Shown here one piece after another: positions 51,989-64,000 of a DNA stretch of 64,000 bases. The position numbers were made by a program, and so were the translations under genes. The notes below the pieces were generated by a model. It had not been told where the DNA came from. It did no database searches and saw nothing but the letters and a program-made list of their open reading frames with translations. Within the stretch, counting starts at the first letter, position 1; the number at the start of each line of letters is the position of its first letter. Origin of the DNA: Cavenderia fasciculata (taxonomy: Eukaryota > Evosea > Eumycetozoa > Acytosteliales > Cavenderiaceae); NCBI RefSeq assembly GCF_000203815.1, contig NW_004457735.1, positions 310,001 through 374,000 of the forward strand, in the 5' to 3' direction.

Positions 51989-53778
51989 TTAAAATAGAAT
52001 AACAATTGCCATGAAGAAGAATGACAATGTTGAAATCATGGTCAATGAAGAACCAGTATTTGAGTCATCGTTTGGAGATGGCATATTATTATTATTTTTG
52101 AAGGTAGCAGTATTAATACTTTCATCTTCCAAGATTGTCAATTGACCACCTTCATTGGAACAAGTTAAACCACCAACACGACAAGTGACACTACCGGCAA
52201 GACATGTGATTTCATGTTGAGTTAGGCAAGCAGTGTATGAATAGTAAGAGAGACCTTGGCATTGGTATCCACCTGGGGAATAACATTCATTGATACCTTG
52301 GAAGGTACAGTTGATTGAAGAGTTGCCGGCATATTCGACGGTGAGTCTACCTTGTTTACTGAGTGTACAAGTGACTTCGGGTCCATCAGATGACGATGAG
52401 GTTTCAGATGAAGAGTTGGTCGAGTTGGAGACTGGTTCAAAATAGACGACGTAACGGTCAGAGAACAAGTAACCGATACTGGCATCTACATAGTAGTAAC
52501 CACCATTGGATGGATAGGAGCTACCTAGATAACAACTTAATTCATTTGGACTAAAGTTGTAAAGGGTACATTTAACAGAGTTGTTGTAAGAGATCAACAC
52601 TGAAATGTTGACAAGTGAATAGTCTTCGCCAAAGTATCCGTAGGCAGTCATAGTCAATGACGTAGAGTTGGGATAGAATGTGAAACCGTACGAAGTGTTT
52701 GGTTGTTGTGCTGGGAAATAGACGTAAAAGTTGTTGATATAGTAGTTCAACTCGAATGTTACATTGGTGTATCCAGCAACATAATTGGAGACGTAGCACT
52801 GGGTATTATTATTAGTGAACTTGGTAATACCACAATAATAGGTTCCATTCAATAAGATATAGGGAGCCGATGAATTAGTTACAAATTGACCATAGAAATC
52901 AATAAGTGATCCTGTCTCATTAACAACAATATTTGTAACTATAGTTGTATTATATGAAATTGCTAAAGTAAATAAATAAATTTAAATGAACAAATGGTAA
53001 GTATAATAATAATAATATATTAATTATATTAATTAAATGACATGACATAACCTACGGAAGAAATAATATTGAGACCAATTGAAACCAGGGAATGATACAC
53101 TGAGTAAAAGATAAGTATTCCATTGAGGATAGAATTCCAAATCACATGCAATCATATAATAATTGGCATAAGTTACATTGCATTGGATCGAGCCGGCACT
53201 AACATAGGTTTGGTTGACTGTTGCATTTACAAAGTTACCGTAAATGTAAATGGTTCTACTTCCAGGTTGGATGTATACACTGCTGACATTTTGAGTGTTT
53301 ACAAATGTCTGTGACAAGATGTAGTGGTCGATATCAACGTATACAGTGTTGTAACCAGCTGGTACGGTAGTTGATGCAAAACAAACGATTTGATAGGATC
53401 TAAATGAAAAGAGGTAACATGATGACCCTCCAATCCACACTGTTACATTATTTGGATTCTCTCCAAAGTATCCTGACAAGGCAAGAGTTTGACTTACTCC
53501 ATCAAATGTTATATTTGAAATGGTATAATTTTCTGTATTTACTTGTTTGTCTATTTCTAAAAAGATTTAAGATTTATATATAAATGATATAAAGAATAGT
53601 GACAAAGTGGGGTGTAAGTACTTATATAGTAATAATAGAACAAAGAAAAAACCAAACCAACTTTAATGTTGTAATCTTAAAGATACATACCAAATTGAAG
53701 TGCATTTGAAAAGCAAAAGTAATTACTACTTAGAGTAATAAATAGTAATAATAGAGATACAAATGTTATCAATTTCAT
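51989..53778 (-). CDS. IPT/TIG-domain GPI-type surface protein A (one repeat exon)
   Basis: Three exons (53778-53691, 53556-53056 and 52962-51989) encode 520 residues. After a signal peptide (MKLITFVSLLLLFITLSS), one 501-bp exon carries a pair of IPT/TIG-like Ig folds (YFGENPNNVTVWIGGSSC; YIYGNFVNATVNQTYVSA). The last exon has two further such domains, a Ser stalk, a conserved Cys-rich module (VTCTLSKQGRLTVEYAG, then GGYQCQGLS, ACLTQHEITC and CRVGGLTCSNEGGQLTI), and a hydrophobic GPI-type end. IPT/TIG domains build dictyostelid recognition proteins such as the Tgr family. An adhesion role is inferred from that. Same exon plan as the three genes that follow upstream. Confidence 0.85.
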
Positions 53779-54130
53779 TGTTTAATAATATTGATGATGA
53801 ATACAATTAATTAAAATCAAATTAAGAAGAGACTCTTTAATATCAAACGGGCCCCTTTGATTAAATTTAATTCAATTTAAATGCTACGTCGAAAACCTTT
53901 TTATTGGAACCCAGGTTGATCATGATTTTTTTCGAAGGTTCTATAAGAAATGTTATTGATGAAAATTTGACTGATTAAAAAGACTTTCTTTAAAAGTATC
54001 CTGAAGATATATTATTGTGAATGTATTGATGATCCTGTATATTGATTCCACTTTAATTTTAGTAATTGTACAATAGGATAGATTAATCGCTTTGTATCTA
54101 TCTATTTTTCATATACCAATTGTATTATTT

Positions 54131-54162
<32 letters not shown>

Positions 54163-54303
54163 TGTATATTTTAATATAATAAAGAAAATGTACTATAGTA
54201 TATATGAAACAAATAGAATAAATATAGAGTGATCGAATCTAGATTAAATTAATTAGAGATTGATAGGTATGGTATGTATGAATGATAGAGAGTTAAAATT
54301 AAA
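53779..54303. other. Intergenic region
   Basis: Spacer between TIG genes A and B. It contains a short (TTA)n run (about 54131-54156) and AT-rich sequence. No gene seen. Confidence 0.5.
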
Positions 54304-56519
54304 TTAAATTAAAATGTAAATGACGGATAATAACGAAGAGAGGATGAAAAGAGTTGAGAATGATGCAGAGGAGGTATCATTGGTTTGTGAATTGGATTCT
54401 TGAGGATTTTCATTGTGATTGAAAGTGGCAGTTGTATCGGCTGTGATGGTTAATTGACCACCTTCAATGGAACAAGACATACCACCAACACGACATACAA
54501 CAGATGATGATCCTTGACAAACAATTTCGTGTGGAGCTAAACATCTGGTCAAAGAGGAACTAGTGAGACCTTGGCATTGAAGTTGAACAACTGGTGAATT
54601 ACATTGGCTGATACCTTGAGAGGTACAATTGATTAGAGTGTCTCCTGAATACTCTACCTTGAGTTGACCTGTTCTACTCAAAGAACATGTTACATCATAA
54701 TATGACGATGATGATGACGATGATGAGTTGTTGTTGGAGCTTGACGATGATGACGATGAGTTGGTCGAGGACGAGGATGAAGACGAGGAGGAAGAGTTGG
54801 TTGGTTCAAAATAGACATTGGTACTATTATAGATTACATTGTCGATTGCACCGTTGACTTGATAGTATCCACCATTGACTGGATAGTTGTTACCAAGATT
54901 ACACAACAAATAAGTTGATGAAAAGTAATAGATTGGACAACGGTTGACTTGACCACCATAGTTGATAGTAATATTAACACTAGTAGATGTATTACCAAAA
55001 GATCCACTCACTTCAAGTCCCAATGGATAAATAGTTGAACGGAATGAACTAAAGTAATAGTTTGGGTTTGGATTGGCTGATGCTAAATTAAATTAATAAA
55101 TAAATAAATTAATGAATTAATATTAAATTGATAGATTTAAATTGATTGATTGATTGTGAGTTGTGTTTGTTTAGAATACATACGGATATAAACAGTGGAG
55201 TATAAATTTTGATTGTCAATATGGAGTAGGATATCATAAGTCTTATTGGTTTGTAAACGTTCGTTTAATTGACAATTGACAAATGAAGGACCGACAGAGG
55301 TGACGGCACAAAATGATTGTACCCATCCGTTGAAGGTGACATATACATGAGTGGCACCGACAGTGTTGTTGTCGAGGCTACCAACGATCATTAACGAGTT
55401 GTCAATGTCATTGTAAGAGACATACGAGATGAAATGATTGGTAACATTCTTGAAAAAGAGTACACCGTTTAATACAACACTACCGATTCTAATACTAACA
55501 GTCTTGGTACCAATTGGAACTGGATTGATGATACAACTGAGACTGGAGTTGGAGAAACTGACAAGTGGACATGGAGTGTATTGATCACCAACCCAAATTG
55601 AAACCAAAGATGAATCATCACCAAATGAACCAGTGGCAGTGATAGTTTGATTACCTCCAAATGTTAAACTTGAAAGTGTATAGTTTGATTGTGGTGGTTG
55701 TGGATTTGGATTGGAACCATCATCTATAAAAATTAAATAAATAAAAGGAGATAGAGAATGAGTATATTATATTATATATTAACTTGATATAAATATATAT
55801 ATATATATTATATAAATATTTATATTATTTATACATACCAATATAAACAGTAGAGTTTAAGTTGAAAAGAGGGGTTGATAAGGTAACTGGATAAGTTGTG
55901 TTGGTTGGTAACCGAAAGACTAATTGACAATCAACAAATCCAGTATCGACGGCGGTGACAACACAACCCACCAGAATCTATAGACAAAGGCAGTAGTGCT
56001 CAACACATTGATATTACTACCAAAACTACCAAGAATCTTGATTGTATTGTCGGTGTTGTTGTAGGCAACATGCGAGATGTAATAGTCAGTGGTGGCATTA
56101 CTAAAAGAGAGTGATCCTTCTAAAACAGTTTGGTTACCATTATTGATTCCGATAAACACGTTCTTGGTACCAGATGGACGTGGATTGATGGTACAACTGA
56201 TACTAGAATTGTAGAAACTAACAATTGGACATGGGGTGGTATTGTTTTGATCACCAACCCAAACTGAAACCAATGATGAATCATCACCAAATGAACCAAT
56301 TGCAGTAATCGTTTGGTTACCATCAAATGTTAAACTTGATAGACCATAGTTTGATTGTACTAGATATTAATAGAAAGAGAAAAAAAAAAAAAAGAAAAGT
56401 TAATTATAATTTAAAATTAATTTCTAATTGTACTTACATTTAGCAACAACCAAATTACTACTACAGAATAATAACAAAAAGGTAGCAACCAATAATAATA
56501 CAAATTGTGATTTGTACAT
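54304..56519 (-). CDS. IPT/TIG-domain GPI-type surface protein B (two repeat exons, one frameshift)
   Basis: Four exons (56519-56438, 56359-55839, 55723-55184 and 55082-54304) would encode about 640 residues. Signal peptide MYKSQFVLLLVATFLLLF, two repeat exons each with a TIG pair, then a last exon with one TIG domain (GLEVSGSFGNTSTSVNITI), a long Ser/Asn stalk, the conserved Cys-rich module (CRVGGMSCSIEGGQLTI) and a GPI-type tail. The first repeat exon is 521 bp, one base short of a multiple of three. Its frame breaks near 55980, after TTAFVYRFWW, and resumes as VVTAVDTGFVDCQL. All other repeat exons are exact multiples of three, so this is either a single-base assembly error or a fresh inactivating change. 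Confidence 0.8.
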
Positions 56520-57527
56520 AATATTAAATGAATGAAAAAGAAAAATAATAATTATATTTAATTAAGAGATATAAAGATGAAGATGAAGTTGTGAATATGA
56601 ATGTGAATGAAATGAAATGAAAGTGCCTCGAGGATCTAAATGCTTTTATACTGCATTCACTATCTATTTGGTGCAAGAGGTTGTTTCGTGTTTCATTTCA
56701 TATGCATATGAAACTGTTGGTGGATAGGGATGGGGATGAGTCCATGTAAGGTTGAGTTTTGTGTATGTTCCCTCCTCCATATGTCCAAAGGGTTTGGTTG
56801 AAGGTATGAACGAAATCATTCATCTGAAATTGAGAGAGAGAGAGATCCAATTTCGATTACATTTGTTGTTTGTGTATGTATGTTGAATAGAGAGACATAG
56901 ACCCTTCACCTTTTGATAATATTTTTTTGTGATGGTCGGATGATCTTCAAAGGGGAGACAAAAGATTTTTTTGATTTTTTTTAATTTTTTTATGGACTAT
57001 GCCCAAAGATGGGTACCGATTTCATTCATTTTTCGTGTCATGGTTGGTCTCTGTTTTCAAAAAACCCTCAAAAGCCACCCAGGAGGCGTTTGTGTATGCA
57101 GACGTAGTCAAAACCAACATGGACATCTGATCTTTTTTTTTTTGAAAATGACCATAGAACTGCTTGGACATCGATTTATTGGTGGCGGGGTTGAACATGA
57201 ACATCAACATGTTGTCATCACAGTCAAGAGGGTGAGTGCAAGGTTGAACCAACAAACAATCCTTTGGTGTAAGGTTTATAAGATTGATTGAAACCTACAC
57301 AAACAAACAAATAAAATATTAAAGTTCATGTTTATTTTATTTTTTGGAGATGGATGAAAGCGAAGTGCTATTCAGAGAAAGCCTTCAATTTTTGTTATTG
57401 GTGTAAATGATTTAATGGTCGGAAATGATGATGATGAATAATTATGAGAGGAGAATAATAAGAGTTGAGAATACTTGGGTGGGAGGGTGGGTAGAGGAAG
57501 AAGAAGACGAAGTAGATGATGATCGAA
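56520..57527. other. Intergenic region with remnant of a GPI tail
   Basis: About 57420-57527, just past the stop of TIG gene C, reads on the minus strand in another frame as a Ser/Thr-rich stretch then FSTLIILLS, matching the Ser stalk and GPI tail (FSTLFILS) of genes B and D. The rest (56520-57400) holds GA-dinucleotide repeats (about 56832-56846) and an unassigned 77-codon minus-strand frame (57022-57255) that I do not recognise. Confidence 0.5.
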
Positions 57528-60500
57528 TTAACTCAATCCACTGTAAGGTCGATACATATCTACATAACTATTGATGATAATGTTGTTGACTATGGTGTTG
57601 ACTAGGTAGTCTTCATAGTTAATTAGAGGGATGTTGACGGGACGAGAACATAACAAATAGTTTGGTGAAAAGTAATAGATTGGACAATCAATATAAGAAA
57701 TGCCACTTTTTCTGAAAAGAACCAATTCAACGCTGACATTGGCCGCATCAGAAGGACTCTCACCAAAATTTCCATCGATTCGAAGTCTCATTGGAGTAGC
57801 AAAGAAAGTATAATAGTAATAGCGATCGTTTGTACTCAATGCTAAAAAAAACAAAGTAAATAAATAATTAAATGACCAATTGATTGAAATTGTTTTAGGT
57901 ATAATTATAAATAATACATACTGGTAATAGACTTTAGATCATTATTAAAGGAGGAACTTGAGATGGAGACATTACAGGGATACCGGGATGGAGAATACTC
58001 ACTTAATCGGCAATCTACGAATCCAGTGTTGACAGCAGTGACTATACAACTATAAGTATAATCGGACCACGACGGACTCGGTTTGATTTGGATGGTAGTG
58101 TTTTCAACAGTCGTGTTGGCAAGATGACCAAATATCTTGAGTGTATTTTGAGTGTCATTGTATACAACCCGAGAGATATGATAGTTGGTATTGTCAATAA
58201 ATACTGTACCATTTAAAATAGTAGTAGTAGTAGTGTCATTCATGTTGTCATTAATTCTAATAGCTATGTTTAATTCACTCGATGTTGGACGTGGATTGAT
58301 GATACAATTGATATTGGTATCAGAAAAGCTGACAATTGGACATGGAGTGTATTCATCAATCCAAATTGAAACCTTTGATGAATCATTTCCAAAGAATCCA
58401 CGAGCATTGATTATTTGAGCATCATCAAATGATACCCTTGTCAATGCATATACTTTTGGTGCTTTAAAAAGAAATGAAATAGGGAAAGGTTAATATGTAT
58501 GTAAGATTAATTTTTTAATAAATTTAATACTAATCAATACATACTGATATAAATAGTAGAAGTGACATAATAGTCAATGTAAACGATATATGTTTCATTG
58601 ACAGGTAACCTTTCGTTTAATTGACAGTTGATAATATGGTTTTGGAGAAAATTGACAAAACATGGAGCCGACTGCCATACAGCGCTGTTTCGATCGACAT
58701 CAAAGTTTCTGGATTTGATATATACGGTTGAGCGTCGTCTATTTCCATCATATTCTTGGCTCAAATATCTAGAGCTACTAAAATTACCAAGAAGAGTGAT
58801 GGAATTTTGGATATTGTCAAAGACAACATAAGAGATATAAGATTCGGGAATCGATATAAACGACTCTTTTAAAACAATATCATTGACTCTGATAGTGATA
58901 TTTGTGAGACGGATACCAGTTGGACGTGGTAATAGGGTACATTTAATATTCGTGCTATTGAAATCGATGATTGAACATGGAGTGTTATCATTTCCAACTA
59001 AAACTGAAACCACTGTTGGATCAAATCCAAAGTATCCAATAGAATTAATCTCTGCTTTTACATTATCAAATTCTGAATATAAATGATAGTAATGAGGTGC
59101 TATATAATTATATAAATATATATATTATAAATAAAAGGGAGGGATGGTGAGAATGATGGATGGAGACTTTTAAAATATATTTTTTGTTGTAATCATTAAC
59201 ATACTAATATCAATAGTAGAGTTTAAAACGGTAACATAGGACCGATCGGTACCGCTGTAGAGATGGATGGATAATGGATAGGTTGCATTATAGGGTCGTA
59301 GATGTGATTTAAATTCGCAATCAACCGATTGGTTAGTGAAGGCACTAATATGGCATGGATACATAAATAGTTGGATTGGAAGTTTTTCACCATTGGTAAG
59401 GGGATAGTCGGTATAATCAACAGTCACAAAGACATATATGGCTCCACCAAAGTAGGTGTAGTAGTCAGCATAGGAATAGTAGTAGGAGTAGTTGGGAAAT
59501 TGACCAGTGATATTGATAGAGTTGGTCATGTTGTTGTACCGAGCACTGGCAATATAAAAATTGGTTGTATTCTTGATTTCAAGTGAAGCGATTAAAGTAG
59601 CGCTATTGATACTAATACTAATGGTCATTATACCAGGTTCATTTGGATGAATGATAAAATTTAGATTTGAACTATTAAACTTTGTGATTCTACATGAAGT
59701 TTTTTGATCATCATAAACTGAAATAAACCCTCCATATTCTCCAAAGTATCCAGTTGCTGAAATGGTTTGTATATCTGCATCAAATGTTAAACTTGAAATA
59801 TTGTAATCTTTGAGTTAGAAAAAAAAAGAAAAGAAAAGAGTATTAGTTAATTTAAATGAATGAATAAATATTAATTACAATGTAAAGAATATACATACTA
59901 AACAAAAGGGTAGATGTTAAATTGAATAGTTTACCCATGACAGAGATATCATAGGTCGTGTTGGGTTGCAATATTCTTTGTCGATAATTACCAAGTAATT
60001 GACAATAGATAGATGTAGTATTGATTGCAGTGACATTACATTCAACTCTGAGGTCAATGGTTTCAACAGTTACTAAGGTACTATTAACCGTATCATAATC
60101 AGTGTCGTCAAAATGACCACTTAGAATGATCGAGAGGTCACGATTATTATAAGCAACATTTGAGATATAATAATAATCAGTATTATTATTATTATTATTA
60201 TTATTGTCATTGTCGTCAAGGAAGAGTGTACCATTCAATATAGTATCACCTACTTTAATGATGACGGTGACAGTTTTGTTACCATCATCTGATTGATGAT
60301 GGTGTGGGTTGATCACATGACTAGTGGTACAGTTGAGACTGGTACTTGTAAATTGAGTTACTTGGCAACCAGCATATTGATCTACCAATATTGAAACCAA
60401 TGATGATTCATCTCCAAAATACCCAGTTGCTGTAATAGTTTGGTTATAGTCAAATGAAAGACTTGAAAGAGTGTATGATGAAGGTTGTGCTAAAAAAAAA

Positions 60501-60628
60501 AAAGGTCAGCTTTAGCCTGTTGCTGTGTGTCAACTGAACTTATAACACATACTTTGAGCAATCACACTACTACTGCTATAGAATAACAAACAAGCAGCAA
60601 CTAATAATAGAAACTGTGATTTGTACAT
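57528..60628 (-). CDS. IPT/TIG-domain surface protein C (four repeat exons, no Cys-rich module)
   Basis: Six exons (60628-60553, 60489-59899, 59807-59205, 59099-58545, 58461-57922 and 57841-57528) encode 892 residues. The signal peptide MYKSQFLLLVAACLLFYSS nearly equals that of gene B. Four repeat exons of 591, 603, 555 and 540 bp each carry a TIG pair with conserved cores such as CPIVSFSDTNINCIINPRPT and FVDCRLSEYSP. The last exon has one TIG domain (IDGNFGESPSDAANVSVE) and then stops at YSGLS, where the sister genes continue into a Ser stalk, Cys-rich module and GPI tail. As predicted the product would be secreted and unanchored. A poly-Asn insert lies in the first repeat exon. Confidence 0.85.
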
Positions 60629-60887
60629 TCTTTGTTTGTTGTAATTTAATTAAATTCTAATAGACATGATGATCATCTGACATCATATTGTTTTTTTCGA
60701 ATTAATTTTTAGATCGTCTACTTTGTCCCGATAAAGACAAACAGTTGGTCATGTCCCCCACAAACAGAGAAAAGACAAAAATAGTTTGTTTTATATCATA
60801 GAATAGATGGTGATGAATAGTTTATTTTGAAGTAAGATACATCAAAGAAGAAATTGAATGACATGAATGATCATTCTCGAGATGAAA
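60629..60887. promoter_or_regulatory. Spacer between TIG genes C and D, likely promoter of C
   Basis: A gap of about 260 bp separates the end of gene D from the start of gene C on the same strand. It contains T/A runs but no clear element that I can name. Confidence 0.4.
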
Positions 60888-63800
60888 TTATATTAAAATG
60901 GAGGCAATGATGGATAATAAGGAGAGGATAAAGAGAGTTGAGAATGAGACAGAGGATAAGGGGGAGGCATCATTGGTTTGGGAATTTGAATCAGATTGTG
61001 AATTGTCATTTGGTGGTAGAGCTGTATCTGCTTTAATACTTAATTGACCGCCTTCAATGGAACAAGACATACCACCAACACGACATACGATAGATGAAGC
61101 TTGACAAACAATTTCGTGTGGAGCTGAACATCTGGTTGATGAAGAACTAAGGAGACCGAGACATTGGAATCCACCTGGAACATTACATTCACTGATACCT
61201 TGAGAGGTACAGTTGATTGGAGCATTGCCTGGATACTCAACCTTGAGTTTACCTGATCTGCTCAATGTACATGTTACATCAGATGATGAGGATGACGATG
61301 ATGGATCAACAGATGACGATGACCATGATGATGAGGAGGAGGATGTAGAATTACGTTGTTTAAAATAGACGTTGGTAGTGTTATAGATGACACCATTGAA
61401 TCCACCGTTGACGGGGTAGAATCCTTCAATGGCTGGGTAGTTGTTGCCAAGTGAACACATCAAATAGGTTGATGAGAAGTAAGTGATGATACAATTAGAT
61501 GTACGACCATTATAGTAACTTGTAATATTGACATTGTTAGAGTTATCACCAAAAGATCCAGTTGCTTTAAGTCCCAATGGATGTAGAATCGAAGTAAATG
61601 AACTAAAGTAAAGGTTTGGATTTGGTTTAATTTCAGGTGCTAAATAATTAAATAAATAAATTAAATTAAATTAGTTTGTTAGATGATGTTTGTGAATATT
61701 ATGTATACTCTTTATAAATATATATATTATTATTATTATTATACATACTAATATAAACAGACGAGGTTAAAGAATAATGAGAACTTGTGAGGTAGACTGG
61801 ATAAGTTGTATTGACAGGTAAACGTTGGTGTAATTGACAATTGACGAATCCAGTCCCGAAAGAAGTGACAGTCACACCGACATGATGGACTCCATTTTGG
61901 ATGGCGACAGTGGTGTTGGTGTCTAGAAGATTACCAGTGATTCTGATTGTGTTTAGAGTGCTATTATAGGTCACACTATGGATTGAATAATTGGTTGGTC
62001 CATTACCAAAGTCGAGTGTACCATTCAATACAGTAGGAGTATATCCAATTTTGATAGTGATAGTCTTGGTACCTGTTGGACGTGGACTGACGGTACATTT
62101 GAGATTGGTACTGTTAAAGCTGACAAGTGGACATGCAGTGGATTGATTGCCACCAACCCAAACTGAAACCAATGATGAATTAGCTCCAAAGAACCCATTG
62201 GCGGAGATGGTTTGGTTACCATCAAATGACAGACTTGTCAAATTGTAAGGGTGATATGCTAAAAATTAAATTATAATAATAAATAATAATAATTAATAAA
62301 TAATAATAAATAATAAATAATAAATAATTATTTTTGTACATACTAATATTGACAGTTGAATATAGAGTGTTATATTCATTTCTATAGACGATAGTATACG
62401 TATCGGTTGGTAAAAGCTGAGTTGGAAGCTGACAATCGACATGTGAAGAGCTGACAAAAGTGATAGCGCACTGATAGGTGGATGTGTTGCGTGAGATGTA
62501 GACGGATGTGTAATAGGTGTTTTCAGAGTCGACGAGAACACCAATGATTCTAATTGAGTTTAGATTGCTGTTGTAGGTGACACTATGGATTGAATAGACA
62601 ATTTTGTTAAAGTAGAGTGTACCACTCAAAACAGCGTTACTGATTCTGATGCTGACAGTCTTGTTGCCCGATGTATTACCCTGCGTTCCGCCAAAAGTAC
62701 ATCTGATAACGGAACTATTGAAACTGACGAGTTTACATGGAGTGTATTGTTCAACCCAAACTGAAACCAATGATGAATCATTTCCAAAGTATCCACGAGC
62801 AATTATTTCATTGTTATTTTGTGACAGACTATGAATATCGTAATCTGGTATTGGTAAAGATGCTAATTTAAATTAAATAAATGGGAGTTGGGAATATTAG
62901 TGAATGGAACTCCATGTTTAAACCACGATATTATTATTATTATTATTATTATTAATACATACTAATATTAACAGTAGAGTATAAAATGTAATAGGGTGAT
63001 TGAAGGGAGAGATCATAGACACCAATTGGTAAACGATCGTTTAATTGACAATTGATGAATCCAGTACCTAAAGAAGTGATGTTTAATCTTATCCATTGAG
63101 TACCGTTTTGGATCGTGACAGCGGTGTTGGTGTCTCGAAGATTACCGGTGATTCTGATTGTGTTTAGAGTGCTATTATAGGTAACACTCTGGATTGAATA
63201 ATTGGTTGGACCATTATCAAAGTCGAGTGTACCATTCAATACAGTAGGAGTATATCCAATTTTGATAGTGACAGTCCTGGTACCTGTTGGACGTGGACTG
63301 ATGGTACATCTGAGTTGGGTACTGTTGAAACTGACGAGTTTGCATGGAGTGTATTGTTCAACCAAAACTGAAACCAATGATGAATTATGTCCAAAGTATC
63401 CAGTAGCAGTGATGGTTTGGTTATAGTCAAATGAAAGACTTGTCAAATTGTAAGGTTGATATGCTACATTATTAAATAATTAAATAATAATTTAATTAAT
63501 AAATAATTAATAAATAATATAATAAATATTTATAATTTATACATACTAATATTCACAGTTGAATATATAGAGGTAAATTCATTTCTATAGACGACAGTAT
63601 ACGTATCAATTGGTACACGCTCATTCAATTGACAATAGACAAGTGAAGAGCTTACAAAGGTGACAGTGCACAAAAACCAAGCGTAGTTGTCGCGTGTGAT
63701 GTGGACGGATGTGTCATAGGTAACAGCGGTGTCGTTGAAAACACCAAGGATTACGATTGAGTTTAGAGTGCTGTTGTAGGTGACTCGGGAGATTGAATAA

Positions 63801-64000
63801 ACATTGTTAAAGTAGACTGTACCTGTCAAAACAGTGGCGTTACCGATTCTGATATTGACAGTCTTGTTGCCCGATGTATTACCCATGGTATTGTTGATAG
63901 TACATCTGAGAACAGAACTATTAAAACTGACGAGGTGACATGGAGTGTCCTCATTACTACTAATCCAAACTGAAACCAATGATGAATTATCTCCAAAATA
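60888..64000 (-). CDS. IPT/TIG-domain GPI-type surface protein D (partial, at least four repeat exons)
   Basis: The 5' end lies beyond the window. Visible exons are >64000-63547, 63463-62963 (501 bp), 62862-62344 (519 bp), 62258-61749 (510 bp) and 61639-60888. Repeat exons alternate between two subtypes: the one at 63463-62963 resembles that at 62258-61749 (VSPRPTGTKTITIKIGYTPT and ISPRPTGTRTVTIKIGYTPT), while 62862-62344 resembles the partial exon at the window edge (GNTSGNKTVSIRISNA and GNTSGNKTVNIRIGNA). So the recent duplication unit was two exons. The last exon has a TIG domain, Ser stalk, the Cys-rich module and a GPI-type tail, closely matching gene B. Intact in the part seen. Confidence 0.85.

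What the first reader, a model, noticed from the sequence alone, without database searches (positions are those of the whole stretch)
51989..64000. Surface-protein array built from symmetric phase-1 exons
In four adjacent genes every internal TIG-pair exon (501, 521, 540, 591, 603, 555, 540, 501, 519, 510 bp) is flanked by phase-1 introns with GTATGT-type donors at the same point after the T-V-x-I residues. All but one are exact multiples of three. Such exons can be added or lost without breaking the frame, so copy number differs from one to at least four per gene. This is a ready mechanism for making variable recognition proteins.
Basis: partly seen in the sequence, partly recalled or inferred. 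Interest (0 to 1): 0.8.

Follow-up and report, generated by a model that had tools for sequence, protein, structure and literature searches.

The report
Amoeba surface genes of repeated exons
A social amoeba carries a row of cell-surface protein genes built from a repeated, frame-neutral exon that encodes two immunoglobulin-like domains, and one gene seems to have grown by copying a two-exon block; this is a real but fairly ordinary way of enlarging a protein family, and no recognition role has been shown.

Summary
Four same-strand genes (51989 to beyond 64000; the last starts 1.2 kb past the window end) have internal exons of 501, 521, 540, 591, 603, 555, 540, 501, 519 and 510 bp. All 23 introns of six family genes (these four, one on C2, one on C18) are phase 1. 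Nine of the ten lengths are multiples of three; the 521-bp exon holds a frame break. Full internal exons number 1, 2, 4 and 5 (plus a one-domain half exon), and 2 and 2 in the paralogs. Model and fold comparison fit two IPT/TIG-like domains per exon. The tree shows exon types B and A; gene 4 reads half-B-B-A-B-A, its last two B-A blocks being duplicates. The junction intron looks hybrid, as unequal crossover inside introns predicts; uneven divergence suggests later conversion. Against the bolder reading: the duplication is not recent (dS about 0.3), dN/dS is below 1 over whole exons, one gene is frame-broken, one lacks its anchor, and 112 of 150 scored TIG matches (449 candidates) lie in frames of 400 codons or more, so introns are not needed to change TIG number. 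Polymorphism, expression and binding could not be tested. Exon-block duplication is supported; use in variable recognition is unproven.

The parts
51989..53778 (-). Gene 1: signal-peptide exon 53778-53691, one internal TIG-pair exon of 501 bp starting at 53556, terminal exon 52962-51989 (further TIG-like domains, Ser-rich linker, Cys-rich module, hydrophobic C-terminus)
54304..56519 (-). Gene 2: signal-peptide exon 56519-56438, internal exons 56359-55839 (521 bp, frame break inside) and 55723-55184 (540 bp), terminal exon 55082-54304
57528..60628 (-). Gene 3: signal-peptide exon 60628-60553, internal exons 60489-59899 (591), 59807-59205 (603), 59099-58545 (555), 58461-57922 (540), short terminal exon 57841-57528 without the Ser/Cys/hydrophobic module
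60888..64000 (-). Gene 4, part in the window: internal exons B2 (531 bp, 63547 up to 64077 beyond the window), A1 63463-62963 (501), B3 62862-62344 (519), A2 62258-61749 (510), terminal exon 61639-60888. Outside the window: B1 64698-64195 (504), half exon 65040-64780 (261), signal-peptide exon 65232-65127
62863..64000 (-). First B-A block of gene 4 (B2, intron I1, A1, junction intron I2); B2 itself reaches to 64077
   Evidence: exon tree; DNA alignment; intron comparison
61640..62862 (-). Second B-A block of gene 4 (B3, intron I1', A2, intron I3), tandem duplicate of the first
62863..62962 (-). Junction intron I2: 5' part most like intron I3 (61748-61640), 3' part most like intron I0 (64194-64078), as intronic unequal crossover predicts

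Best explanation
This is a tandem cluster of four paralogous genes in a dictyostelid amoeba encoding secreted or surface-anchored proteins with arrays of IPT/TIG domains. The building block is a symmetric class 1-1 exon encoding two TIG-like domains, set between a signal-peptide exon and a terminal exon with one or two more TIG-like domains, a Ser-rich stalk, a Cys-rich module and a hydrophobic (GPI-like) tail. Shown from sequence: the architecture (splice sites predicted, not observed), the phases, two exon types (B, A) shared with dispersed paralogs, and duplication of a B-A block in gene 4. Supported but weaker: the duplication arose by unequal crossover inside introns, and conversion later spread tracts between exons. 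Inferred only: the proteins act in adhesion to cells or prey, possibly in recognition.
Against: No transcript data. The compared introns are AT-rich with simple repeats, so ranks and p-values are soft; gene 1's two introns were not in that comparison. The three A1/A2 segments and the 225-base window were chosen after looking, and the A1=B3 patch rests on four sites, also found by looking. B2/B3 shows no conversion tract (run p 0.28, window p 0.25). Group A is not one group in the full-unit tree (two changes), though it is on first halves at 79/75. Only 3 of 12 inner branches of the full tree are strongly supported. pTM is 0.52, so the relative placing of the two domains is unsure. Gene 2 is frame-broken (or misassembled) and gene 3 lacks its anchor, so not every copy need be functional.
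Confidence: 0.72

Rival explanations
1. An ordinary old paralog family: exon numbers differ because of ancient duplications and losses. The cluster drifts under weak constraint, and the symmetric phase is simply inherited from the first TIG exon; no diversifying role.
For: Duplication dS about 0.3 and gene 3 exon divergence (dN 0.62, dS 1.18 for g3_3/g3_4); dN/dS 0.37-0.75 over whole exons in 11 pairs; frame break in gene 2, missing terminal module in gene 3, broken signal-peptide relic upstream of gene 4.
Against: Gene 4 is open across all its exons and has its anchor; dN/dS below 1 implies some constraint; tracts of unequal synonymous divergence suggest exchange after duplication.
Confidence: 0.4
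2. A recognition repertoire: exon-block duplication and conversion supply variable ectodomains for self/non-self recognition, as tgrB1/tgrC1 do in D. discoideum.
For: TIG surface proteins, tandem cluster with a gene relic, exon exchange; the published tgrBC locus diversifies by duplication and recombination (PMC12324515, Results read).
Against: No polymorphism, expression or binding evidence; all four genes on one strand, not divergent pairs; no cytoplasmic tail visible; duplication not recent.
Confidence: 0.2
3. Diversity is made at the RNA level: 1-1 exons are skipped in different combinations to give isoforms of different length.
For: All 23 introns are phase 1, so 16 of the 17 internal exons can be skipped singly in frame.
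Against: No transcript evidence; introns are short (63-134 bp), a setting not known for regulated skipping (recalled).
Confidence: 0.06
4. The gene models are wrong: the exons are separate small genes or the splice phases are misread.
For: No RNA data; gene 2 has a frame break; gene 1's second donor is GTAGGT.
Against: One signal-peptide exon and one terminal exon per gene, open frames, mostly GTATGT donors, and the same structure in two dispersed paralogs.
Confidence: 0.05

Closest known systems
Dictyostelid Tgr (Tiger) proteins, tgrB1/tgrC1
   Same: Extracellular IPT/TIG repeats, expanded family, tandem copies and fragments, recombination between copies
   Different: Here TIG-pair exons with phase-1 introns, a hydrophobic C-terminus without visible cytoplasmic tail, a Cys-rich module, head-to-tail genes; orthology not testable here
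IPT/TIG + EGF-like + C-type lectin family expanded outside D. discoideum (OG5 153020: 50 members in D. fasciculatum, 9 in D. discoideum; PMC4334915 Table 2, section read)
   Same: Expanded TIG proteins outside group 4 dictyostelids
   Different: Whether these four genes belong to that orthogroup was not tested; no EGF module was seen in them by eye
ComC-like TIG/EGF genes of the same genome (L022-L025; likeness to ComC recalled and from one Pfam name)
   Same: A TIG+EGF exon of 378 bp in L025 is symmetric 1-1; one window exon matches Pfam 'ComC second beta-sandwich' below its cut-off
   Different: TIG plus EGF in one exon; other parts of these genes have many phase-2 introns
Single-TIG-per-exon gene on C9 (L026)
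   Same: 6 of 6 introns phase 1, all five internal exons multiples of three
   Different: Mostly one TIG per exon; different domains at the end
Class 1-1 modules of animal extracellular proteins (exon shuffling; recalled)
   Same: Domain-bearing exons with phase-1 introns on both sides, duplicable in frame
   Different: Amoebozoan, two domains per exon, block of two exons duplicated; independent origin likely (inference)
IPT domains of MET and plexins
   Same: Tandem IPT fold, best fold matches
   Different: 13-17% identity in the named rows; likeness of fold only

Membership tests
IPT/TIG domain proteins | Pfam TIG match | tested here: met
   7 of 9 exon proteins at E<=0.01, best 1.3e-07; of five exons scanned two pass Pfam's own cut-off (one internal exon of gene 2, that of gene 1), two match below it, and gene 4's terminal exon has no TIG match
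IPT/TIG domain proteins | IPT fold in the first half of the exon | tested here: met
   Model pLDDT 88.4; MET and plexin IPT rows span it; Pfam TIG best stretches fall in the first half
IPT/TIG domain proteins | IPT fold in the second half of the exon | tested here: inconclusive
Tgr (Tiger) family | Single transmembrane span with intracellular domain (as stated for tgrB1/tgrC1 in PMC11088635, passages) | tested here: not met
   Five of six genes end in a hydrophobic stretch with no tail, the sixth (gene 3) has none (by reading, no predictor run)
Tgr (Tiger) family | Divergent tgrB/tgrC pair sharing a promoter (PMC12324515) | tested here: not met
   Four genes all on the minus strand
Tgr (Tiger) family | Sequence orthology to tgrA-T | not testable with these tools
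   No Dictyostelium protein set was available
Allorecognition genes | High polymorphism matched to compatibility | not testable with these tools
   One genome only
Class 1-1 exon modules | Phase 1 at both ends | tested here: met
   23 of 23 introns of six genes
Class 1-1 exon modules | Module duplicated in place as an exon or exon block | tested here: met
   B-A block duplicated in gene 4
Class 1-1 exon modules | Module moved into another kind of protein | not tested
   1-1 TIG exons occur in other architectures but movement was not examined

The most novel reading that the evidence does not exclude
In this amoeba the IPT/TIG domain is a general class 1-1 exon module, appearing as single-TIG, TIG-pair and TIG+EGF exons, and the C3 cluster is an active generator in which intronic crossover and conversion keep reshuffling B-A blocks to supply variable adhesion or self-recognition receptors: an animal-style exon-shuffling system that arose independently in Amoebozoa.
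Probability: 0.15. Interest if true: 0.75.

Novelty: new variant of a known kind. Interest (0 to 1): 0.42.

Why it matters
Allorecognition in social amoebae is known mainly from the tgr genes of D. discoideum and its kin. A modular TIG cluster in what looks like another dictyostelid, where a block of exons has been copied, gives a concrete locus for asking whether such amoebae diversify surface proteins by exon-block change rather than by whole-gene duplication. It also gives an amoebozoan case of phase-1 domain exons, which are usually discussed for animals (recalled).

Tried and rejected
Independent chance test of 'all phase 1': rejected as a strong argument, since the introns share ancestry and tandem exon duplication requires symmetry. 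Single-exon gain as the unit: the tree favours a two-exon B-A block in gene 4; gene 2's two exons pair only moderately, on first halves (84/86). Positive selection: not found over whole exons. By parts, B2/B3 has dN 0.276 and dS 0.285 in its last 66 codons, and dN 0.507 and dS 0.43 in its first 13 codons, too few to weigh. Half exon of gene 4 as remnant of a single-TIG exon architecture: it ends at the domain boundary in phase 1, as the C9 gene's exons do, but a deletion is equally possible. Solved-structure sequence search with the exon profile: 0 matches at E<=1. Literature: searches (Cavenderia fasciculata with TIG domain, 0 papers; tgr genes, exon, IPT; Dictyostelium with exon shuffling, 35 papers, 20 listed; symmetric exons, phase 1, Amoebozoa, 10 papers; Dictyostelium with intron phase, 26 papers, 15 listed; fasciculatum, TIG, allorecognition, 150 papers, 15 listed) showed no title or abstract start describing this architecture; listings only, and most subscription papers are not held. 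Species: 31.0 Mb in 21 contigs. D. fasciculatum is my recalled guess; A. subglobosum has a similar size (30.9 Mb; PMC4334915, passages). The FNIP search (193 matches, 150 of 848 candidates scored) was meant to separate them (55 against 381 family members) and does not settle it.
Full report
What is there. The window is C3:310001-374000 of a 31.0-Mb genome in 21 contigs, which I take for a dictyostelid; the species is not settled. On the minus strand four genes lie head to tail. Each starts with a signal-peptide-like exon ending in phase 1, has a varying number of internal exons of about 0.5-0.6 kb, and ends with a terminal exon. Gene 4 continues past the window to 65232 with a 261-bp half exon and exons of 504 and 531 bp. 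Stop codons end at 51989, 54304, 57528 and 60888.

Phases. All 23 introns of the six family genes (2+3+5+7 in the cluster, 3+3 in the paralogs on C2 and C18) are phase 1, the frame-broken exon being read in its local frames; 21 of 23 donors are GTATGT. Sixteen of the 17 internal exons have lengths divisible by three; the exception, 521 bp, contains a frame break. A rough intron scan over the sequence then held gave, outside the family, 24 phase 1, 38 phase 2 and 14 phase 0 of 76 at score 1.3 or more, and 32, 45 and 24 of 101 without a score limit. The scan is crude: of its 16 calls within the family coordinates 14 were phase 1 and two were phase-2 calls that I judge false. The family pattern is not the genome's default, but its introns are not independent.

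History. Related exons occur at C2 and C18, where the order is B, A, terminal. On a tree of 15 full exon proteins (half exon and frame-broken exon left out) the five B exons form one group (97/98), g4_A1 pairs with g4_A2 (97/97), C2_A with C18_A (98/96) and g4_B2 with g4_B3 (92/84). Only 3 of 12 inner branches are starred, group A is not one group, and g1_1 and three of gene 3's exons have long branches. On first halves of all 17 units B is one group at 100/97 and A at 79/75. Gene 4 reads half, B1, B2, A1, B3, A2, so B2-A1 and B3-A2 are best explained as a tandem block duplication. Aligned codons are 81% (A) and 79% (B) identical, with NG86 dN/dS of 0.19/0.29 and 0.23/0.30.

Mechanism. A tandem copy made by crossover within the flanking introns predicts a junction intron that starts like the intron after A2 and ends like the intron before B2. 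Against 20 other family introns (gene 1's two were not included), the 5' part of the junction intron was closest to the intron after A2 at all three lengths tried, and the 3' part closest to the intron before B2 at two of three and second at the third. Shuffle p values were 0.018 and 0.001; the opposite pairings gave 0.69 and 0.07. With AT-rich introns this is supportive, not proof. Later exchange: synonymous divergence between A1 and A2 is 0.28, 0.12 and 0.72 in the first, middle and last parts, and the longest identical run of 54 bp has p 0.005; B2/B3 shows no such tract (p 0.28). Four successive sites group A1 with B3 among 76 informative sites, 67 of which group A with A and B with B (p 0.0006). 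Segments and site pattern were picked after looking.

Is it special? Elsewhere in this genome TIG exons bounded by phase-1 introns also occur: a gene on C9 with 6 of 6 introns in phase 1 and five internal exons of 279, 273, 300, 282 and 855 bp, and a 378-bp TIG+EGF exon in L025 that is symmetric 1-1. Yet 112 of the 150 scored TIG matches (of 449 candidates) lie in open frames of 400 codons or more and 33 in frames under 300; the exons of this cluster are not among the 150. TIG arrays thus seem to grow with and without introns.

Comparison with the literature. In D. discoideum tgrB1/tgrC1 are TIG surface proteins that mediate allorecognition, and their locus is a hotspot of duplication and recombination (PMC12324515: abstract, Results; 'exon' and 'intron' do not occur in its text). 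They are described as single-pass transmembrane proteins (PMC11088635, passages). TIG families are large and variable between dictyostelids (PMC4931340, passages; PMC3188802, passages). An IPT/TIG/EGF/lectin family is expanded outside D. discoideum, with 50 members in D. fasciculatum (PMC4334915, section 7). The present genes are TIG relatives of the same broad kind but fail two Tgr features that could be tested.

Verdict. Observation confirmed; exon-block duplication supported; recognition role untested. New variant of a known kind, moderate interest.

Noticed in passing
L009, window coordinates 65561 to about 65479 (outside the window): A signal-peptide-like exon with an in-frame stop and an intact-looking donor lies about 0.25 kb upstream of gene 4: probably the relic of a lost family gene.
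   Followed up: partly
56359-55839: The first internal exon of gene 2 (521 bp) changes frame inside its second half: pseudogene, polymorphism or assembly error.
   Followed up: partly
57841-57528: Gene 3's terminal exon stops after a TIG-like domain and lacks the Ser/Cys/hydrophobic module, so its product would be secreted, or the gene is decaying.
   Followed up: partly
L014 (C18:428710-429129), L018 (C21:708621-709046), also C10:338970, C21:2037533, C7:836321, C14:2199846: The terminal Ser/Cys/hydrophobic module is also found outside this family; at C18:428710 (75% identical to gene 4's) it shares one open frame with a quite different N-terminal part, which hints at module transfer at the Ser-codon repeat rather than at an intron.
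   Followed up: no
L026 (C9:296501-300500) and C9:313234-315560: TIG gene with mostly one TIG per exon and 6 of 6 introns in phase 1; one search shows a second set of matches about 16 kb away with similar spacing.
   Followed up: partly
L022, L023, L024, L025: ComC-like genes: phase-1 introns beside TIG/EGF exons, many phase-2 introns in other parts.
   Followed up: partly
C3:391307-403433 (L010, L011): Head-to-tail series of five similar-looking long minus-strand frames (670-705 codons), another tandem family near the TIG cluster.
   Followed up: no
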